DNA of 34,637 bases from a virus: positions 1-34,637 of IMG/VR virus record IMGVR_UViG_3300021091_000224; one strand, 5' to 3'. Under the pieces are notes generated by a model. It saw only the letters and a list, made by a program, of their open reading frames with translations, was not told the origin of the DNA and did no database searches. Positions within the stretch are counted from its first letter, which is position 1. Every line of letters begins with the position of its first letter. A program made the translations under genes and the position numbers. This document shows positions 1 through 34,637 of the stretch, piece after piece.

Positions 1-105
1 CACAATCGGGTGGATAGCTTGCCATAGTGCTAGGCACTCATGGAATCCTAGGGTAATGTCACCCTTGCCAGCGTGGAGCAGAATTTCCCTTTGTTGGGGC
101 GTGAT
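1..105. repeat. terminal direct repeat, left copy
   Basis: These 105 bases recur at 34533-34637 with four substitutions, at positions 40, 46, 51 and 55. The repeat lies inside a coding sequence that reads through the join, so the simplest reading is a circular or circularly permuted genome with an assembly overlap. The mismatches suggest that two strain variants were sampled. A true fixed terminal repeat would normally be identical in its two copies. Confidence 0.9.
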
Positions 106-4184: not shown

Positions 4185-4207
4185 TTAGGGAAAGCACTAA
4201 TGCATCT

Positions 4208-4233
4208 TGTTTAGCATCCTATACACTATTGGC
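4208..4233 (+). promoter_or_regulatory. promoter P3 with operator O2
   Basis: O2 at 4208-4225 reads TGTTTAG-CATC-CTATACA, an 18-bp imperfect dyad whose half-sites match at six of seven positions. Its right half overlaps the -10-like TACACT (4222-4227). ATG 4234 follows after six bases, with no ribosome binding site. The element TTAGGGAAAG lies about 40 bases upstream (4185-4194), and the same ten bases occur at a similar distance before P4. Confidence 0.6.
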
Positions 4234-4698
4234 ATGGCAAAGACAGGAAAAGCATCCCCGCTCTACGGCAAACTGATGACCGCAGAGCTTCCAAGCGCAG
4301 TCAAAAAACTATGGTATTCCCGCGACGAGGAACTGCCAGAGTTGCCCAGGCATGGCTGGTCATTCGATCTGGTCACGGACATGGAATCAGTGGAGAACAG
4401 AGATCTGTTGTTCAAGATCCTGGAGGACTGCCCATTGACAGACCGCGAGATGCTGGCGATCAAACTGATCGAGCATGAAGGCTACACACTTGATGAAGCG
4501 GCCCAGGAACTTGATTGCGGCAAAGAACGCGCCCGTCAGATCCATATGAAAGCCCTCAGAAGACTTCGCACTCATCAAGTAAAGATCACAGGCCAGAAGT
4601 TGTGGGAACTGGAGTGCATTGTCCAGACCTGGAGAACCTGGAAGTGGTCAAGAGTTTCGCCGTGGCTTAGGGAAAGTACCTATTCCAATGGTGTTTAG
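4234..4698 (+). CDS. regulator with sigma-70 region-4-like helix-turn-helix, 154 aa
   Basis: Residues about 65-113 (CPLTDREMLAIKLIEHEGYT, then LDEAAQELDCGKERARQIH and MKALRRLR) closely match the HTH of sigma factor region 4, which normally reads the -35 element. There is no region 2, so it cannot act as a complete sigma factor; it is more likely an activator, repressor or sigma-appropriating protein. ATG 4234 is six bases after TACACT without a ribosome binding site, so leaderless translation is expected. The TAG stop lies inside operator O3, which controls the erf operon. It occupies the divergent position opposite cro where lambdoid phages carry cI. Confidence 0.7.
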   Translation: MAKTGKASPLYGKLMTAELPSAVKKLWYSRDEELPELPRHGWSFDLVTDMESVENRDLLFKILEDCPLTDREMLAIKLIEHEGYTLDEAAQELDCGKERARQIHMKALRRLRTHQVKITGQKLWELECIVQTWRTWKWSRVSPWLRESTYSNGV

Positions 4699-6599: not shown

Positions 6600-6695
6600 A
6601 GGCAGCGCGCAGCAGCGCCCGGAGCGGCTAGGAAAGGCTCGGCATAGCGGCGCTCGGAACGGCAGGGATTGGCTAGGCTAGGTTATCAGCAGATC

Positions 6696-6719
6696 AGGCA
6701 TTTACCAAAGTGCCTTTTC
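6696..6719 (+). terminator. intrinsic terminator of the erf operon
   Basis: AGGCATTT (6696-6703) pairs with AAAGTGCCT read back from 6715, giving an eight-base-pair stem with one T-G wobble and an ACCA loop, followed by TTTTCT. It lies about 100 bases after the last gene of the erf operon. It is also the hairpin of the first repeat module. Confidence 0.65.
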
Positions 6720-6834
6720 TGGTGGTAATACCAATCGGCAGTGCATAGTTTGGCGGGGCATGGCTGGGCGGGGCGGTGCATGGCCGGGATAGGCTGGGCA
6801 AGGCTTGGCTTGGCAACGCAAGGATGTTTATAGC

Positions 6835-6875
6835 GATATGTATCTCAAATGATACATATCGGTGGAAACACCAAT
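6835..6875. repeat. perfect inverted repeat plus GGTGG hairpin
   Basis: GATATGTATC (6835-6844) and GATACATATC (6851-6860) form a perfect ten-base-pair dyad around a six-base loop. Immediately after, GGTG-GAAA-CACC (6861-6872) can form a second stem with a GAAA tetraloop, then AAT. No T tract follows, so a terminator is unlikely. A protein-binding dyad or origin hairpin fits better. Confidence 0.6.
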
Positions 6876-6954
6876 GAGCGCGGCTGGGCGTGGCTGGGCA
6901 GGGATAAGCTGGGCGCGGCAATGACTAGCAAGGCAAACTTAACGAAAGAAACTC

Positions 6955-7569
6955 ATGACAACTGCAACAACTTCAGACACACGACTCAACATTGTTCAGC
7001 GACGAATTAAACTCAAAGGGGTCACTCCCATGATGTTTGACCGATACGCTGGCGACAACCAAACGAAACTGGAATGGCATCAAAAAATCTACCTGCGACC
7101 AGGGACACAAAACCTGTGCCTCCCGACTCTAAACTTGGTTTCCTTCTTCACCGCACACAACACGAACTCAGCACCCAAGAGGCTGCGCGACAAGAGGATC
7201 TACAAGTCAATCTGCAACGCAATCCTGAGCTTCGTGAATATAACCGCTACGGACGGTAACGCAGAGAACATCCTGATACACCGCGATGGCAAACCAATCG
7301 AGGTCGGCACATTCACCGACCGCATAGACGAAACCAGCGGCATCTACCTCCACAGGGCTGTAGCACGCCTTGACAAGGGCATTCCAAACCCCAAAGAACG
7401 CCCCGTTCTGCCCTGCCCTTGGGAGCTTGAGTTCGATCTGACGATCTACCCAAACAAAGAGATCAAGGAACAGGAAATCAAGAACCTACTTAAAGAGGGT
7501 GGAATGGCAATCGGACTGGGGACTTTCCGTGGCGTCTTTGGTAAGTTTGAGGTCGTTTCTTGGGAATAA
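6955..7569 (+). CDS. conserved phage protein of unknown function, 204 aa
   Basis: The protein looks like a widespread proteobacterial phage family near recombination genes. Recognisable blocks are KGVTPMMFDRYAGDN (21-35), NTNSAPKRLRDKRIYK, the PKERPVLPCPWEL region, and a C-terminal Gly-rich segment GGMAIGLGTFRGVFGKFEV. The last block vaguely recalls the glycine-rich loop of RAMP/Cas7-type RNA-binding folds, but the evidence is too weak to name a function. ATG 6955 directly follows the GGC-rich region; the ribosome binding site is poor. It starts a new gene group after the terminator at 6719. Confidence 0.75.
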   Translation: MTTATTSDTRLNIVQRRIKLKGVTPMMFDRYAGDNQTKLEWHQKIYLRPGTQNLCLPTLNLVSFFTAHNTNSAPKRLRDKRIYKSICNAILSFVNITATDGNAENILIHRDGKPIEVGTFTDRIDETSGIYLHRAVARLDKGIPNPKERPVLPCPWELEFDLTIYPNKEIKEQEIKNLLKEGGMAIGLGTFRGVFGKFEVVSWE

Positions 7570-7571
7570 GC

Positions 7572-7772
7572 ATGATGGATAGCGACATCATTGAAATTTG
7601 GCGAAAGCACCAAGAAGTTCACGCCTTTGCTAATGAACTGCTGAACATTGAGCGCCGTATCTGTGCCGATCTTGCTGACAAGCATGAGAGAAAGCACGAA
7701 CACAGGCAGATTGATGGGAAGTGGGAGTGGATTAGCCCTGCGGCATTTGCTATCAGGGAGAGGATCAAATGA
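7572..7772 (+). CDS. hypothetical protein, 66 aa
   Basis: ATG 7572 (or 7575) follows the previous stop by two bases with GGGAA upstream. The protein is charged and helical, with a His-rich stretch (KHERKHEHRQIDGKWEW), and shows no classical zinc motif. Its stop overlaps the truncated copy of the 8910 gene (ATGA at 7769). The function is unknown. Confidence 0.6.
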   Translation: MMDSDIIEIWRKHQEVHAFANELLNIERRICADLADKHERKHEHRQIDGKWEWISPAAFAIRERIK

Positions 7773-7794
7773 CCGATAGAGACTTGATGCAGCA
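7767..7794 (+). repeat. 28-bp direct repeat, left copy
   Basis: These 28 bases are identical to 8908-8935. The pair brackets the 77-aa gene and the glycosyltransferase. Each copy contains the first nine codons of the same gene, intact only on the right. Confidence 0.9.
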
Positions 7795-7804
7795 GGAGGC
7801 GTGA
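7769..7804 (+). pseudogene. truncated 5' remnant of the 8910-9140 gene
   Basis: The frame [11 protein letters not shown] stops after 11 codons and repeats exactly the first nine codons of the gene at 8910. ATG 7769 still overlaps the upstream stop (ATGA), as expected for the ancestral gene order. The remnant supplies AGGAGG (7794-7799) as the ribosome binding site for the inserted GTG-start gene at 7806. It therefore marks the left edge of an insertion of about 1.1 kb. Confidence 0.75.
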
Positions 7805-7805
7805 A

Positions 7806-8039
7806 GTGAGCGATTTAGAACTTTTTGACACTGACGATCCGTTATGGCATCAGATGCCAGAGTTCAATCAACAAGATCATGGCCCAATGTTTACGGTCAA
7901 AATCCACTTTAGAAATGAAGCGGACATGAACGAGTTTTTTGACTTAATCAATCAGCGCCGCACAAAAAGAAAAAGTTACTGGCATCCTGCCGCTGAGGTT
8001 CGCAGGGTGGCTGACAAACTATGGGAGGACACGAAGTGA
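7806..8039 (+). CDS. conserved small protein paired with the glycosyltransferase, 77 aa
   Basis: GTG 7806 has a perfect AGGAGG six bases upstream, inside the truncated remnant. The core MFTVKIHFRNEADMNEFFDL followed by RTKRKSYWHPA looks like a small phage family that I associate with DNA-modification and glycosyltransferase cassettes; that association is from memory. The fold looks like one beta-alpha-beta unit. The stop overlaps the glycosyltransferase GTG start, so the two are coupled. The function is unknown. Confidence 0.7.
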   Translation: MSDLELFDTDDPLWHQMPEFNQQDHGPMFTVKIHFRNEADMNEFFDLINQRRTKRKSYWHPAAEVRRVADKLWEDTK

Positions 8040-8920
8040 TTCCGTCATATCCCGTCTATATTGTGTCAAAAGGTAGATGGGAATATCATTTGCGCCTTAC
8101 GGCGCGAGCACTTGATAACATGAAAATTCCGTATTTTATTGTTGTCGAGGACTCGCAGTTTGCTCAATACGCTGCCGTAGTTGGGGCTGATCGCTGTTTG
8201 GTGCTTCCTGAAAAATATAAGATTGAGTATGACCTTTTTGGAAAGTTTGAAGATGGCAAGACAGGACCTGGACCGGCTCGAAATTTTGCGTGGCAACACT
8301 CCATTGATAACGGCTACAAGTGGCATTGGGTCATGGATGACAATATCGGCTCTTTTAGAAGGTTACATAACAACCTTCAAATCCGAGTTTCTGGGGGCGC
8401 GATATTTTGCGCTATGGAGGACTGGTGTGGCCGATACGAAAATGTCGTAATTGGTGGTCCGCAGTATGATTTTTTCTTGCCAAGCAAATACGCTTTCCCT
8501 CCATATGTTTTGAACACTAGGGTGTACTCTTGTCTGTTGATAAGAAATGACATTGGACTCAGGTGGCGCGGACGGTATAACGAAGACACCGACTTGTGCT
8601 TGAGAGCGTTAAAGTCAGGTTTGGTGACTGTGCAGTTTAACGCTTTCATTCAAGAGAAAAAAGAAACTCAGGGTATGCGCGGAGGAAACACAGACGAGTT
8701 TTATTTACAAGAAGGAACTAAAGCAAAAAGCGAAATGCTCGCCGCCATGCACCCAGATTGTGCAAAAGTGATTCGGAAATATGGGCGATGGCATCACCAT
8801 GTAAATTACAAGGTGTTCAAACAGCGTCCTGCGCTACGAGATGGCATCGTCATCGAAGCGGGGTATAACAACTATGGTATGGAACTTTCTTCAAAAAACA
8901 ACTGGCAAAATGACCGATAG
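8036..8920 (+). CDS. GT-A glycosyltransferase of the TET/JBP-associated (TAGT-like) type
   Basis: The residue blocks PVYIVSKGRWE (6-16), TGPGPARNFAW (76-86), WHWVMDDNIGSF with MDDN at 100-103 as the nucleotide-sugar/metal motif, and YNEDTDLCLR (181-190) match the phage glycosyltransferase family. Members of that family are proposed to add sugars to oxidised or hydroxymethylated pyrimidines in DNA. The length (294 aa) is normal. GTG 8036 has GGGAGG seven bases upstream and overlaps the previous stop. No TET/JBP dioxygenase or hydroxymethylase is visible in this genome, so the acceptor is unclear. The gene is more AT-rich than its neighbours and is bracketed by a direct repeat, pointing to lateral insertion. 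Confidence 0.8.
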   Translation: MIPSYPVYIVSKGRWEYHLRLTARALDNMKIPYFIVVEDSQFAQYAAVVGADRCLVLPEKYKIEYDLFGKFEDGKTGPGPARNFAWQHSIDNGYKWHWVMDDNIGSFRRLHNNLQIRVSGGAIFCAMEDWCGRYENVVIGGPQYDFFLPSKYAFPPYVLNTRVYSCLLIRNDIGLRWRGRYNEDTDLCLRALKSGLVTVQFNAFIQEKKETQGMRGGNTDEFYLQEGTKAKSEMLAAMHPDCAKVIRKYGRWHHHVNYKVFKQRPALRDGIVIEAGYNNYGMELSSKNNWQNDR

Positions 8921-8935
8921 AGACTTGATGCAGCA
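8908..8935 (+). repeat. 28-bp direct repeat, right copy
   Basis: Identical to 7767-7794. It lies at the right edge of the glycosyltransferase cassette and overlaps both the end of that gene and the start of the next. This placement suggests the cassette arose by duplication or homology-driven insertion at the start of the 8910 gene. Confidence 0.9.
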
Positions 8936-9140
8936 AGCGCTAGAGGCGCTTGAGTTCGTAAGAGACACTCCGGCCAGCAAGGACGAGATACAGCGTGCCT
9001 GGATCGTGATTAACCTTTTGCAGAAACGGCTGGCGCGGCAAGAGCAGGAGTCGTATCAAACGGTAGATTCAATCAATGCCAAAACAACGATGCTATTTGA
9101 CGATTGGCAAGGCGGTTTCCCGTTTAAGGAGAGCAAATGA
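8910..9140 (+). CDS. hypothetical protein, 76 aa
   Basis: ATG 8910 lies within the last 11 bases of the glycosyltransferase gene. The protein starts [20 protein letters not shown], a helical opening frequent in small phage proteins, and continues as a charged helix before a short C-terminus ([15 protein letters not shown]). A truncated copy of its first codons lies at 7769. Its stop overlaps the next gene (ATGA). The function is unknown. Confidence 0.7.
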
Positions 9141-9322
9141 AGGCTAAAATTCTTGACCCCAGCTTTAAATATGTAAACGCCGCATCGACTAACATTCAAG
9201 AAACATGGAAAAAATTTGGCTGGAGGCCGTTAAGTGAAATGCCCAAAATGCGGAGCGTGGAGTCTAGTGAGAGACACACGACAGAAGAACGGAACAGTCA
9301 GAAGATTCAGAGAGTGCGGTAA
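9137..9322 (+). CDS. conserved small phage protein, 61 aa
   Basis: The segment [20 protein letters not shown] followed by KKFGWRP looks like a recurrent small phage protein family of unknown function. ATG 9137 overlaps the previous stop. The conserved part ends near residue 33. The remaining residues overlap, in another frame, the zinc-ribbon gene starting at GTG 9234, and the stop overlaps ATG 9322 as TAATG. Confidence 0.65.
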
Positions 9323-9488
9323 TGAACATCGTTTTACCACTGAAGAGCATGAAGTTCCCAAAAACAAACGAGGCGGGTCCAGACTTCGACGCCTGGAATC
9401 ACGAGAACTTAGCCCAGTTCGCCAAACAAGCGAACGAACGAATGAAGGCTCAGGAGGAGCAGATAGAGGCTCTGAAGATGGACGTTAG
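9234..9488 (+). CDS. small zinc-ribbon protein, 84 aa
   Basis: The N-terminus [17 protein letters not shown]...[14 protein letters not shown] carries C3, C6, C27 and H31, the half-ribbon seen in many phage NrdR-like zinc-ribbon proteins. GTG 9234 has GGAGG about ten bases upstream. Only the first 40 residues look conserved. The rest overlaps the gene at 9322 in another frame and is low-complexity and basic, so the functional protein may be just the ribbon. It may bind nucleic acid; no target is known. Confidence 0.6.
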
Positions 9489-9531
9489 GTACGCTATGGA
9501 TGCCTATAGAAAGGCCATTACGGGGCGCTAA
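9322..9531 (+). CDS. helical small phage protein, 69 aa
   Basis: The core [20 protein letters not shown] continues as [20 protein letters not shown], a single amphipathic, probably coiled-coil helix typical of a small phage family of unknown function. ATG 9322 overlaps the upstream stop (TAATG). An internal ATG at 9349 ([13 protein letters not shown]) is a possible alternative start. Its 3' end overlaps the convergent phosphoesterase gene by 14 bases, so the plus-strand operon and the late operon meet without an intergenic terminator. Confidence 0.65.
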   Translation: MNIVLPLKSMKFPKTNEAGPDFDAWNHENLAQFAKQANERMKAQEEQIEALKMDVRYAMDAYRKAITGR

Positions 9532-10492
9532 CGTCAATAATCTGACCCCTAAACTCGATCTCGTTATCACTCCACTGATGGGCCAGCTCAGGCCACAAAA
9601 GCCGCCCATCCTTAAAGGTGAGCACAGCAAAGCCAGATCTCCAGTTCACCGGATTGTCCTCAAGATAATCCGTGAATTGGGGTCCATTGGTGTCTGCTAG
9701 AGTTCCTGTATCTACACCGTATCTATTGCCTGTGTAATCGGCAAATGGCGTGACCTTCAGGCTGTGCAGATGGCCTGTGACAATGCTGATACCGGCATTA
9801 ACAGTATTGTTGTGCGCGGCATGGATGCCGCCCTTGTAGCGGTGCTTTACAACTACCTTTTCGGTAGGCCAGCACGACCAGCACGGTATCCAGGCTGGAA
9901 AGTGGTCTGACAGCTTAAAGCCGCCAACGTGCATATATTCCGGCACTGTATTGGCAAGCCTGTTCTCAAACCGCGCATCATGGTTGCCAAGCGACCATAC
10001 GAGCTTTGCCTTGCCAGCAGCGTCCTCGATCTCTCCCAAAGACATCTCACAAGCCTTTAGCTCATCAATGACAGATGGCTTAGAGTCCCAGCCAATCCTG
10101 GGGTGTCTGCTGATTGCGGCTCCATCAAAAGCGTCACCATTATTGATGATCGCTTTCGGCCTTAGCTCTTTGATAGCCCACAGCAGACCCTTAAAAGCTG
10201 TGCTACGGATTCCAGGCCAGAAATGAGCATCAGAGAAGACTAAGACGACCCCATTCTCTATGCCTAGATGATGTCGAGCAGCAGAGTTATAGGACGGTAT
10301 GTGGTGCTCAACGCCACGCTCTACTTTTGATGCAACAGAAGGAAGACGCTCGCCAGTTTTGCCCTCGATCTTCCTCCGACGAGACATTACCTGTCGTTCG
10401 CTGATGCCAAGCACCTTAGACATCTTGACCGGAGACTGATATTGCTTCCAGAGTTCAATAAACTCCGACTCAGAGATCGCCACCCTCGACAT
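9518..10492 (-). CDS. metallophosphoesterase with N-terminal HTH, 324 aa
   Basis: All calcineurin-type metal motifs are present: SDAH (87-90), NNGDAFDG (117-124), SLGNHDARF (167-175) and GHLHS (240-244). Residues about 13-42 (LWKQYQSPVKMSKVLGISER onwards) form a helix-turn-helix, an unusual addition suggesting a DNA- or RNA-directed phosphodiesterase or phosphatase. The substrate is unknown; phage DNA ends, RNA 2',3'-cyclic ends or host signals are possibilities. It is the last gene of the late minus-strand operon and overlaps the zincin-like gene by 23 bases. Confidence 0.85.
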   Translation of the reverse strand: MSRVAISESEFIELWKQYQSPVKMSKVLGISERQVMSRRRKIEGKTGERLPSVASKVERGVEHHIPSYNSAARHHLGIENGVVLVFSDAHFWPGIRSTAFKGLLWAIKELRPKAIINNGDAFDGAAISRHPRIGWDSKPSVIDELKACEMSLGEIEDAAGKAKLVWSLGNHDARFENRLANTVPEYMHVGGFKLSDHFPAWIPCWSCWPTEKVVVKHRYKGGIHAAHNNTVNAGISIVTGHLHSLKVTPFADYTGNRYGVDTGTLADTNGPQFTDYLEDNPVNWRSGFAVLTFKDGRLLWPELAHQWSDNEIEFRGQIIDVSAP

Positions 10493-17222: not shown

Positions 17223-17516
17223 TCAAACCCCTATCAAAACTTCATCCACTTTTCCCACATCTTTTTCATTAGTGGCGTGGATACAAAACCAAACACAATC
17301 TTCCAAAGCCTTAATTCCATGCGTCACGCCAGCTTTTATCTCTATGCAAGCTGGTGCTTTCACGATTTCAACATCGTCGCCCATCATTACTGCAACCTTC
17401 CCATGAGCCAAGATTGACAAATGACTGAACTCATGTGTGTGCTTGAGAATGAGTGCGCCAGCAGGAAATCTTGCTTCTTTTGCATATAGACCATCACTAA
17501 AGTGATGTGAAATCAT
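17223..17516 (-). CDS. cupin-fold protein encoded beside the tail fibre, 97 aa
   Basis: H26 and H28 in LKHTHEFSH with H32, and H66 in AGVTHGIKAL, form the metal-binding histidines of a small cupin barrel. The rest alternates beta strands. ATG 17516 overlaps the collar-fibre stop (ATGA), and its coupling to that gene suggests a virion or fibre-assembly role. An enzymatic role on sugars is also possible. An in-frame GTG at 17531 is a less likely start. Confidence 0.75.
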   Translation of the reverse strand: MISHHFSDGLYAKEARFPAGALILKHTHEFSHLSILAHGKVAVMMGDDVEIVKAPACIEIKAGVTHGIKALEDCVWFCIHATNEKDVGKVDEVLIGV

Positions 17517-18226
17517 GCCGTCCTTTTCCACATAAACACAGTTATGTAGGGTTGATAGTTGGCATTGGTTCCGGAGGAGCCAGTCGAGCTTGTTGTGCCG
17601 GATACCGTGTGCGAGTGATCGCCCGCAGATGCGGTGGTGTAGTTGTAATCGCCGACAAGGCTCTCAGAACTAGATACAACTGCGGTAGGACCGGTGCCAG
17701 ATTTCGTACTCTGTGTCAGACTACCGCCGTGCTGGTGTGCTCCAGCGGTGTTAGTTGTTGTGCTAAAACTATGAGTGTGGCTGACCGTAATCGCATCTGC
17801 GGAACCGCCTGTTTCCTCTGCCGTATCGAACAGGGCATTACTAGAGTCAAAGCCAACAGGAACACGGCCAGCACCAAAAGCAGTCCATGTACCAAAGCCT
17901 AGCAATGTGCCAGGGTTGGTGGAATTGGTGGCGTTGATGTAGATAGAGCCGACTGGATGCAACGCGGCCATTGCTGCTTGCACAAAAGCAGTTGTTGCTA
18001 AAGCAGTTGTATTGTTCCCAAACGTCTGAGTAACACCAGTGGTGCCAGTCGGCAAAGATGGTGTGCCAGTAAAGGTTGGCGAAGCAAGATCGGCCTTGGT
18101 TGCAACAGCAGTAGCAATGTTATTGAACTCAGTGTCAATCTCAGTGCCCTTGACAATCTTTAGCGGATTGCCAGATGCAAGCGCATCTTTGGTAGCAAAG
18201 TTGGTGCTCTTTGTATAGTTACTCAT
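17513..18226 (-). CDS. tail collar-type fibre protein, 237 aa
   Basis: The N-terminus (SGNPLKIVKGTEIDTEFNNI, then ATAVATKADL) is the trimerising attachment segment of podovirus tail proteins. LHPVGSIYINATNSTNPGTL and GTWTAFGAGRVPVGFD form the phage tail-collar domain. Two HxH-rich loops (SHTHSF, AGAHQHGG, GDHSHTV) recall metal-binding receptor tips of short fibres. The C-terminus ends NYQPYITVFMWKRTA, as is usual for this type. It is probably a receptor-contacting fibre near the tail tip. Confidence 0.85.
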   Translation of the reverse strand: MSNYTKSTNFATKDALASGNPLKIVKGTEIDTEFNNIATAVATKADLASPTFTGTPSLPTGTTGVTQTFGNNTTALATTAFVQAAMAALHPVGSIYINATNSTNPGTLLGFGTWTAFGAGRVPVGFDSSNALFDTAEETGGSADAITVSHTHSFSTTTNTAGAHQHGGSLTQSTKSGTGPTAVVSSSESLVGDYNYTTASAGDHSHTVSGTTSSTGSSGTNANYQPYITVFMWKRTA

Positions 18227-34226: not shown

Positions 34227-34400
34227 CCTAGGGTAAACCCTAACAGGGCCAGCGAGCATAGGGTAGACCCTAATAGGGAAAACGAGCACAGCGCTAACCC
34301 TTGTTGCGTCTGCGCCACAGGGACAAACCCTAATAGGGTTAAGTACTGATAGGGTAAACCCTGATAGGGTAAACGAGCATAGGGAAAACCCTGATGCGCG
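34227..34400. repeat. 30-bp tandem repeat array (iteron/operator-like)
   Basis: Five to six tandem units of 29-31 bases lie at about 34227, 34257, 34287 (degenerate), 34316, 34347 and 34378. The core is ATAGGGTAAACCCTAATAGGG, given here as its halves ATAGGGTAA and ACCCTAATAGGG, with a CGAG or CATAGGG linker. ACCCTA-A-TAGGG is a dyad. Units are contiguous with no unique spacers, so this is not CRISPR. The array is typical of iterons bound by an initiator, or of a multi-site operator. Confidence 0.85.
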
Positions 34401-34412
34401 GGATGCGTGGGG

Positions 34413-34637
34413 TTATGTGGATTTTGCATGGGACCGTTTCATAGGTGAAACGCGGGTAGATGGGGGCGATGCACCATTTTCGGGGTACTCTTGGGGGTGC
34501 CTAGTCCCTGATGTTTCACGTGGAACAGTTGTCACAATCGGGTGGATAGCTTGCCATAGTGCTAGGCACTCTTGGAAACCTACGGTTATGTCACCCTTGC
34601 CAGCGTGGAGCAGAATTTCCCTTTGTTGGGGCGTGAT
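34413..34637 (-). CDS. small DNA-binding-type regulator, C-terminal part (gene crosses the join)
   Basis: This is the in-frame continuation of the gene that starts at ATG 147. From the window edge it encodes ITPQQREILLHAGKGDITVG and ends KRSHAKST at TAA 34415. This copy carries V and Q where the left copy has L and H, plus two silent changes. The C-terminal 40 residues are Pro/Ser/Arg-rich and probably disordered. It is encoded immediately beside the repeat array, which supports a role in binding it. Confidence 0.7.
   Translation of the reverse strand: MTPQQREILLHAGKGDITVGFQECLALWQAIHPIVTTVPRETSGTRHPQEYPENGASPPSTRVSPMKRSHAKST
34533..34637. repeat. terminal direct repeat, right copy
   Basis: Matches positions 1-105 at 101 of 105 bases. 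Collapsing the overlap gives a circle of about 34,532 bp. The four substitutions are confined to a 16-base stretch. Confidence 0.9.

What the first reader, a model, noticed from the sequence alone, without database searches (positions are those of the whole stretch)
7806..8920. TAGT-type DNA glycosyltransferase without a visible base-oxidising enzyme
TAGT enzymes are proposed to glycosylate oxidised pyrimidines made by TET/JBP dioxygenases. None of the other genes here looks like a dioxygenase, thymidylate-synthase-like hydroxymethylase or nucleotide kinase. The enzyme may use a host-provided base, act on another acceptor, or pair with the unknown 77-aa protein or the 204-aa protein at 6955 in an undescribed modification route.
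Basis: partly seen in the sequence, partly recalled or inferred. Interest (0 to 1): 0.7.

Follow-up and report, generated by a model that had tools for sequence, protein, structure and literature searches.

The report
Mobile two-gene phage DNA-sugar cassette
This phage carries a recently acquired pair of overlapping genes, a sugar-transferring enzyme and a small protein that almost always travels with it, which probably decorate the phage's DNA although no known helper enzyme that prepares the base is present.

Summary
The glycosyltransferase is real. Window 8021-8920 encodes a Pfam TAGT protein (E 2.2e-39) with a conserved DDN/NED/H core. The finding's coordinates also hold a second gene, the 77-aa ORF 7806-8039. 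No TET/JBP, C5-methyltransferase, thymidylate-synthase-like, ParB or alpha-glucosyltransferase gene was found in the window, whose ends overlap by 105 bp, so it is probably complete.

The 77-aa protein is the enzyme's partner. Its domain (labelled MPEF here) is fused to, or encoded just upstream of, TAGT in 78 of 80 relatives; the other two start at contig ends. A reciprocal search gave 80 of 80, and a second 79 of 80. The 204-aa protein is not a partner: TAGT occurs in 0 of 25 of its relatives' records.

The pair is one mobile cassette. It is the only DNA shared with an unrelated 36-kb phage (80% identity), it is flanked by an exact 28-bp repeat, and two close relatives show the empty site.

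Elsewhere MPEF is often joined to a ParB-like domain, and such genes also precede phage TET genes, pointing to DNA as the target. The acceptor base is unknown. The enzyme is not close to T6's TAGT. Solitary TAGTs are already in print; I found no description of the partner module.

The parts
7806..8039 (+). 77-aa partner protein ('MPEF' domain: W..MPEF.Q ... F.N..D...F..LI.Q..T..K..W.P)
   Evidence: homologous to N-terminal extensions fused to TAGT and to separate upstream genes; no Pfam or PHROG hit; codon-position constraint
8021..8920 (+). TAGT-family GT-A glycosyltransferase, 299 aa (probable start GTG 8036, overlapping the stop of the 77-aa gene)
   Evidence: Pfam PF20691 2.2e-39; phrog_842; conserved D106 D107 N108, N187 D189 T190, H259; overlap read from sequence
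7767..7794 (.). left copy of exact 28-bp direct repeat flanking the cassette
8908..8935 (.). right copy of the 28-bp repeat; supplies the last TAGT codons and stop and the start of the downstream gene
7795..8907 (.). acquired cassette; G+C 0.449 against 0.495 for the window; aligns to an unrelated phage at 7792-8856
   Evidence: empty site in L291 and L294
8910..9140 (+). downstream gene (MTDRDLMQQ...), whose first codons are the duplicated target
   Evidence: intact orthologue follows the upstream gene directly in L291 and L294
6955..7569 (+). 204-aa protein, tested and NOT part of the system
   Evidence: 0 of 28 relatives have TAGT, MPEF or TET in the DNA held; 0 of 25 whole records

Best explanation
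The 77-aa protein and TAGT form a two-subunit enzyme encoded by one self-contained, mobile cassette. Translation of the two genes is coupled by their overlap. TAGT is a GT-A, probably metal-dependent transferase that takes a sugar from a host nucleotide-sugar pool and places it on bases of the phage's own DNA, which would shield the DNA from host nucleases. The MPEF subunit presents DNA or completes the acceptor site; in other phages it is hooked to a ParB-like domain that would bind or slide on DNA. No TET or hydroxymethylase is needed from this phage, so the acceptor is either an unoxidised base group or a base altered by something outside the known enzyme families. Shown: family, conserved core, module, mobility, absence of known oxidases. 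Inferred: complex formation, DNA as target, anti-restriction role. Unknown: acceptor and sugar.
For: Module: 78 of 80 TAGT relatives have MPEF fused (21) or upstream on the same strand (57); the two misses start 3 and 191 bp from a contig end. Reciprocal MPEF searches: 80 of 80 and 79 of 80, the miss (L337) being cut by a contig end. The loci form 75 TAGT clusters at 80% identity. Among 163 cassettes the stop-to-stop frames overlap in 122 and are fused in 25. Cassette: sole DNA similarity to an unrelated 36-kb phage, 28-bp flanking repeat, empty sites. DNA link: a ParB_N-like protein, mostly with MPEF as its tail, is present in 33 of 81 and 19 of 80 loci; ParB_N-like genes precede phage TET genes in 29 of 36 loci, the other seven being cut at the contig edge, and precede a second TAGT type in 60 of 69. 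HTVC112P gp17-gp18 are ParB_N-Tet_JBP. A Rhodococcus phage thymidine-hypermodification operon also holds ParB and TET-like genes (PMC11955845, passages). T6's TAGT is a DNA enzyme according to PMC13216743.
Against: No experiment. The nearest solved folds are protein and polysaccharide glycosyltransferases (ColGalT1, GalNAc-Ts, cellulose and hyaluronan synthases), so the fold does not point to DNA. The window itself has no ParB domain. T6's TAGT is distant: best window-type match to T6 is E 0.0034, against 1.9e-16 for TET-linked TAGTs, so its substrate cannot be carried over. The MPEF link to ParB was read by profiles that I built here. A direct acceptor on an unoxidised base has no precedent that I know of.
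Confidence: 0.55

Rival explanations
1. TAGT acts on DNA, but on an oxidised or hydroxymethylated base supplied from outside the known families: by the host, by an unrecognised oxidase in this phage, or from free 5-hydroxymethyl nucleotides. The cassette is then a second-step enzyme.
For: T6 TAGT is a second-step enzyme beside gene 42 dCMP hydroxymethylase (PMC13216743). Three TET loci carry ParB, TET and TAGT together (L209-L211). Many window proteins have no Pfam hit. Two relatives have an unclassified gene between MPEF and TAGT that looks 2OG-oxygenase-like by eye (L039, L048; the L039 copy has no Pfam hit). General 2OG oxygenases occur in 6 of 31 records.
Against: TET 0 of 48 records over cut-off (one weak match), thymidylate-synthase family 0 of 41, C5-MTase 1 of 41. 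Named phages phiAS5, henriette, 1.076.O and 1.124.O lack TET and lack a second, divergent PF00303 member. The cassette moves alone, so a needed oxidase would have to be present in every recipient.
Confidence: 0.25
2. TAGT-MPEF glycosylates a protein, for example a virion protein or a host defence protein.
For: Best fold matches include collagen hydroxylysine galactosyltransferase and polypeptide GalNAc-transferases. In many relatives the genes lie just before terminase genes.
Against: Recurrent tie to ParB-like proteins that also precede TET dioxygenases. The cassette is found with unrelated virion gene sets. In the window it lies in the ERF/YqaJ recombination region.
Confidence: 0.15
3. Cell-surface (LPS or O-antigen) modification, as in seroconversion.
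For: A sugar epimerase gene lies near some relatives and a second DxD-type transferase in L144 (weak).
Against: No lipid-carrier or flippase-like partner found in the window scans. Partner domain is joined to ParB in many phages. Only 5 relatives in 84,980 cellular genomes against 375 in viral contigs, with the same near-relative patterns.
Confidence: 0.05

Closest known systems
TAGT / beta-glucosyl-HMC-alpha-glucosyltransferase of phages T2 and T6 (PF20691)
   Same: Same Pfam family and, by prediction, GT-A fold (PMC13216743).
   Different: T6 enzyme groups with TET-linked TAGTs, apart from the window type (tree with long-branch warnings; phmmer 1.9e-16 against 0.0034). T6 has gene 42 and alpha-GT; the window has neither and has the MPEF partner.
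Phage TET/JBP hypermodification operons with ParB-like gene (HTVC112P; Rhodococcus phage Tonitrus)
   Same: ParB-like gene directly upstream of the modifying enzyme, or in the same operon (PMC11955845 passages).
   Different: No TET here; the window keeps only the MPEF part and no ParB domain.
ParB-TAGT of Lactobacillus phage jlb1
   Same: ParB_N gene overlapping a TAGT gene without TET.
   Different: Different TAGT clade; no MPEF domain detected; different ParB tail (profile comparison E 0.59).
Solitary TAGTs of PMC13216743
   Same: TAGT without alpha- or beta-GT (288 of 753 phage genomes in that paper).
   Different: In the passages and Discussion that I read, that paper does not mention a partner protein, ParB link or mobile cassette.

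Membership tests
TAGT (PF20691) | Match to the family profile over its curated cut-off | tested here: met
   136 bits against 27.5, profile 1-205 of 205
TAGT (PF20691) | GT-A fold with conserved acidic (DxD-like) core | tested here: met
   Core residues 66 of 66; AlphaFold2 model of the fused relative L054, pLDDT 89.3, matches GT-A enzymes, Z up to 13.9. The window protein itself was not modelled.
TAGT (PF20691) | Association with TET/JBP dioxygenase (the source of the name) | tested here: not met
   None in window; 0 of 48 records over cut-off. Not required by the Pfam definition.
TAGT (PF20691) | Glycosylates a DNA base | not testable with these tools
   Needs LC-MS or enzyme assay
T6-type HMC disaccharide pathway | dCMP hydroxymethylase and alpha-GT in the same genome | tested here: not met
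   No PF00303 and no PF11440 (T6 control positive) in the window
T6-type HMC disaccharide pathway | Enzyme falls with T6 TAGT | tested here: not met
   T6 joins TET-linked TAGTs; long-branch warnings
ParB-linked base-modification operons | ParB_N domain encoded beside the modifying enzyme | tested here: not met
   No PF02195 in the window; only the MPEF domain that is ParB-fused elsewhere
MPEF-TAGT module (defined here) | MPEF domain fused to or directly upstream of TAGT | tested here: met
   77-aa ORF hit, E 9.9e-20; the window sequence is itself one of the nine seeds; relatives as

The most novel reading that the evidence does not exclude
MPEF-TAGT is a self-sufficient two-gene DNA hypermodification system that puts a sugar on an unoxidised DNA base in one step, guided by a dedicated recognition subunit that is often tethered to a ParB-like clamp. 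It spreads between unrelated phages as a plug-in cassette.
Probability: 0.25. Interest if true: 0.85.

Novelty: new variant of a known kind. Interest (0 to 1): 0.6.

Why it matters
Solitary TAGTs are common in phages, but what they act on is unknown. A defined partner, an exact mobile unit and a natural with/without pair of close relatives make the question testable: two small genes, expressed together or one at a time, should show whether a DNA sugar can be added without a base-oxidising enzyme. It also suggests that ParB-like proteins are a common accessory of phage base-modifying enzymes.

Tried and rejected
204-aa protein as partner: rejected. Cupin-like ORF as hidden oxidase: matches tail-fibre families. 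MPEF as the same domain as the tail of TET-linked ParB proteins: profile comparison E 0.055, not significant; tail of jlb1-type ParB E 0.59. Flanking repeats as a general feature of the cassette: only the window has the 28-bp repeat; exact repeats of 15 bp or more occur in 4 of 145 cassettes against 4 of 2900 control spans, the other three being AT-rich 15-mers. Promoter/terminator scan 6600-9700: 2 promoter-like sites (3.6 expected) and 4 terminator-like sites (3.1 expected), none informative. No PDB sequence relative of TAGT. Window 77-aa tblastn against phages: no match at E 0.1; 204-aa: none. Degenerate DNA pattern for the motif: no match in the window, a poorly written pattern. Gene-level clustering first merged TAGT and a methyltransferase through a fusion (L029); separated. 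Alignment A3 misplaced the short MPEF rows and was not used. Papers by DOI or id (Iyer 2013, Burke 2021, Lee 2021) are not held. The statement that the partner module is not in print rests on the searches and the passages read only.

Full report
What is there. The range 7806-8920 holds two overlapping genes on the + strand. The second (8021-8920, 299 aa) is a TAGT-family glycosyltransferase: PF20691 at E 2.2e-39, full profile, 136 bits against a cut-off of 27.5; phrog_842 at 4.9e-47. A GTG at 8036 overlaps the stop codon of the first gene and lies behind GGGAGGA (sequence), so that start is likelier than the ATG at 8021. In 66 aligned relatives the residues D106-D107-N108, N187, D189-T190 and H259 of the window enzyme are conserved in every row. 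The first gene encodes 77 aa with no Pfam or PHROG match. Differences from relative L002 fall at codon positions 1/2/3 as 6/1/29 for the 77-aa gene and 33/10/135 for TAGT, so both are real coding genes under constraint.

Is an oxidase really missing? Family searches of the window found no TET/JBP, C5-methyltransferase, thymidylate-synthase family, ParB_N, 2OG-FeII_Oxy_3 or alpha-GT. Pfam scans of 40 window proteins found none either. The search for beta-GT rang nowhere, so it says nothing. The window's first and last 105 bases agree at 101 positions and a minus-strand frame reads through the joined ends, which suggests that the genome is complete; the four mismatches leave some doubt. Among relatives, TET was over its cut-off in 0 of 48 records, with one weak match, PF00303 in 0 of 41, PF00145 in 1 of 41, and general 2OG oxygenases in 6 of 31; many of these records are fragments, and they are part of the 80 contigs. 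Of the named phages with this TAGT type, phiAS5 and henriette have one ordinary strong PF00303 match, 1.076.O and 1.124.O none, and PTm1 has a second, divergent one (E 1.5e-10); T6, the control, shows its gene 42. TET is absent from all of these. 1.124.O has a weak PF00145 match (E 2.5e-8), and the deposited records of 1.076.O and 1.124.O call themselves partial genomes.

The 77-aa protein is the partner. Reading upstream of TAGT in relatives showed N-terminal extensions with the same W..MPE[FY]...W.P pattern. A profile from nine seeds (the window protein and eight fused extensions, no neighbouring genes) found this domain fused to TAGT in 21 of 80 relatives and in a separate upstream gene in 57; the two misses, L023 and L059, begin 3 and 191 bases from a contig end. 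These sets overlap in part; the loci with the named phages form 75 TAGT clusters at 80% identity. Among 163 cassettes the stop-to-stop frames overlap in 122, are fused in 25, have one gene between in 14, and in 2 are otherwise placed.

It is a mobile cassette. Against the 36-kb contig of relative L005 the only DNA similarity is window 7806-8856 (80%; 7792-8856 with more sensitive settings); at protein level one further short protein is clearly related (59% over 83 aa) and the terminase only weakly (25%). An exact 28-bp direct repeat, 7767-7794 and 8908-8935, flanks the pair. In L291 and L294, collinear relatives whose 204-aa protein is 99% identical to the window's, the upstream gene runs straight into an intact copy of the downstream gene: the empty site. 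The right repeat supplies the last codons and stop of TAGT and the start of the downstream gene. The repeat is peculiar to the window: only 4 of 145 cassettes have any exact flanking repeat of 15 bp or more. The G+C of the cassette (0.449) is at the 6th percentile of the window.

The 204-aa protein is not involved: 0 of 28 relatives have TAGT, MPEF or TET in the DNA held, and 0 of 25 whole records searched have TAGT.

Why DNA is the likeliest target. In 33 of 81 and 19 of 80 loci a ParB_N-like protein is present beside TAGT, mostly with MPEF as its C-terminal domain (Pfam ParB_N 9.2e-8 for L037; PDB relatives are ParB, Noc and sulfiredoxin). A second, distant TAGT type, that of Lactobacillus phage jlb1, has ParB directly upstream in 60 of 69 loci. 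Phage TET/JBP genes have ParB directly upstream in 29 of 36 loci, the other seven being cut at the contig edge, and three of these loci also hold TAGT. In HTVC112P the pair is ParB_N (2.9e-10) and Tet_JBP (1.1e-29). My ParB profile included the jlb1 and HTVC112P proteins among its seeds. A Rhodococcus phage thymidine-hypermodification operon with ParB- and TET-like genes is in print (PMC11955845, passages). Relatives of TAGT are rare in cellular genomes: 5 in 84,980, against 375 in viral contigs, with patterns that find near relatives only. Auxiliary neighbours fit a sugar on a polymer without naming which: a SAM methyltransferase adjacent in 13 loci and fused to TAGT in L029, an epimerase, and a possible second transferase in L144 (below cut-off).

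Against. The predicted structure of the fused relative L054 (pLDDT 89.3) is GT-A and closest to protein and polysaccharide transferases. T6's enzyme is distant: the tree joins it to TET-linked TAGTs (support 99, with long-branch warnings), phmmer E 1.9e-16 against 0.0034 for the best window type. So neither the T6 substrate nor DNA specificity can simply be carried over. The ParB-MPEF model is less certain (pLDDT 79.1, pTM 0.55).

Compared with what is known. PMC13216743 (passages, Discussion) reports that T2/T6 TAGT adds a second glucose, that TAGT is GT-A and that 288 of 753 phage genomes carry TAGT without alpha- or beta-GT. PMC13390438 (passages) says the same of the second-glucose step in T6-like phages. 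In what I read and searched I found no mention of the MPEF partner, the ParB link of solitary TAGTs or the mobile cassette. I therefore rate it a new variant of a known kind: membership in PF20691 is met, membership in the T6 pathway is not.

Noticed in passing
window 1-105 and 34533-34637: Terminal 105-bp overlap with four mismatches clustered at positions 40-55; a minus-strand ORF reads through the join, suggesting a circular or terminally overlapping genome.
   Followed up: partly
window 34229-34395: Imperfect 15/30-bp tandem repeats of AACCCTAATAGGGT type near the right end.
   Followed up: no
L029:2615-4291: TAGT fused to a SAM-dependent methyltransferase; the same methyltransferase lies next to TAGT in 13 other loci, possibly methylating the sugar.
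   Followed up: partly
L185-L220: Phage TET/JBP genes have a ParB-like gene directly upstream in every locus where the contig reaches that far (29 of 36).
   Followed up: partly
L039:9437-9979 and L048:9442-9978: Small protein with a 2OG-oxygenase-like HxD look between MPEF and TAGT; the L039 copy has no Pfam hit (L048 copy not scanned); candidate oxidase for that lineage.
   Followed up: no
L144:3430-4422: Possible second glycosyltransferase (Gly_transf_sug, below cut-off) between ParB-MPEF and TAGT.
   Followed up: no
window 4207-4698: Small protein with a sigma-70 region 4 domain (E 6.7e-11), upstream of the recombination genes.
   Followed up: no
window 17226-17531: Cupin-like protein that matches tail-fibre adhesin families.
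   Followed up: partly
NC_049340.1 123231-123866 (Tenacibaculum phage PTm1): Second, divergent thymidylate-synthase-family match with one in-frame TAA, in a phage with fused MPEF-TAGT; possibly a hydroxymethylase.
   Followed up: no
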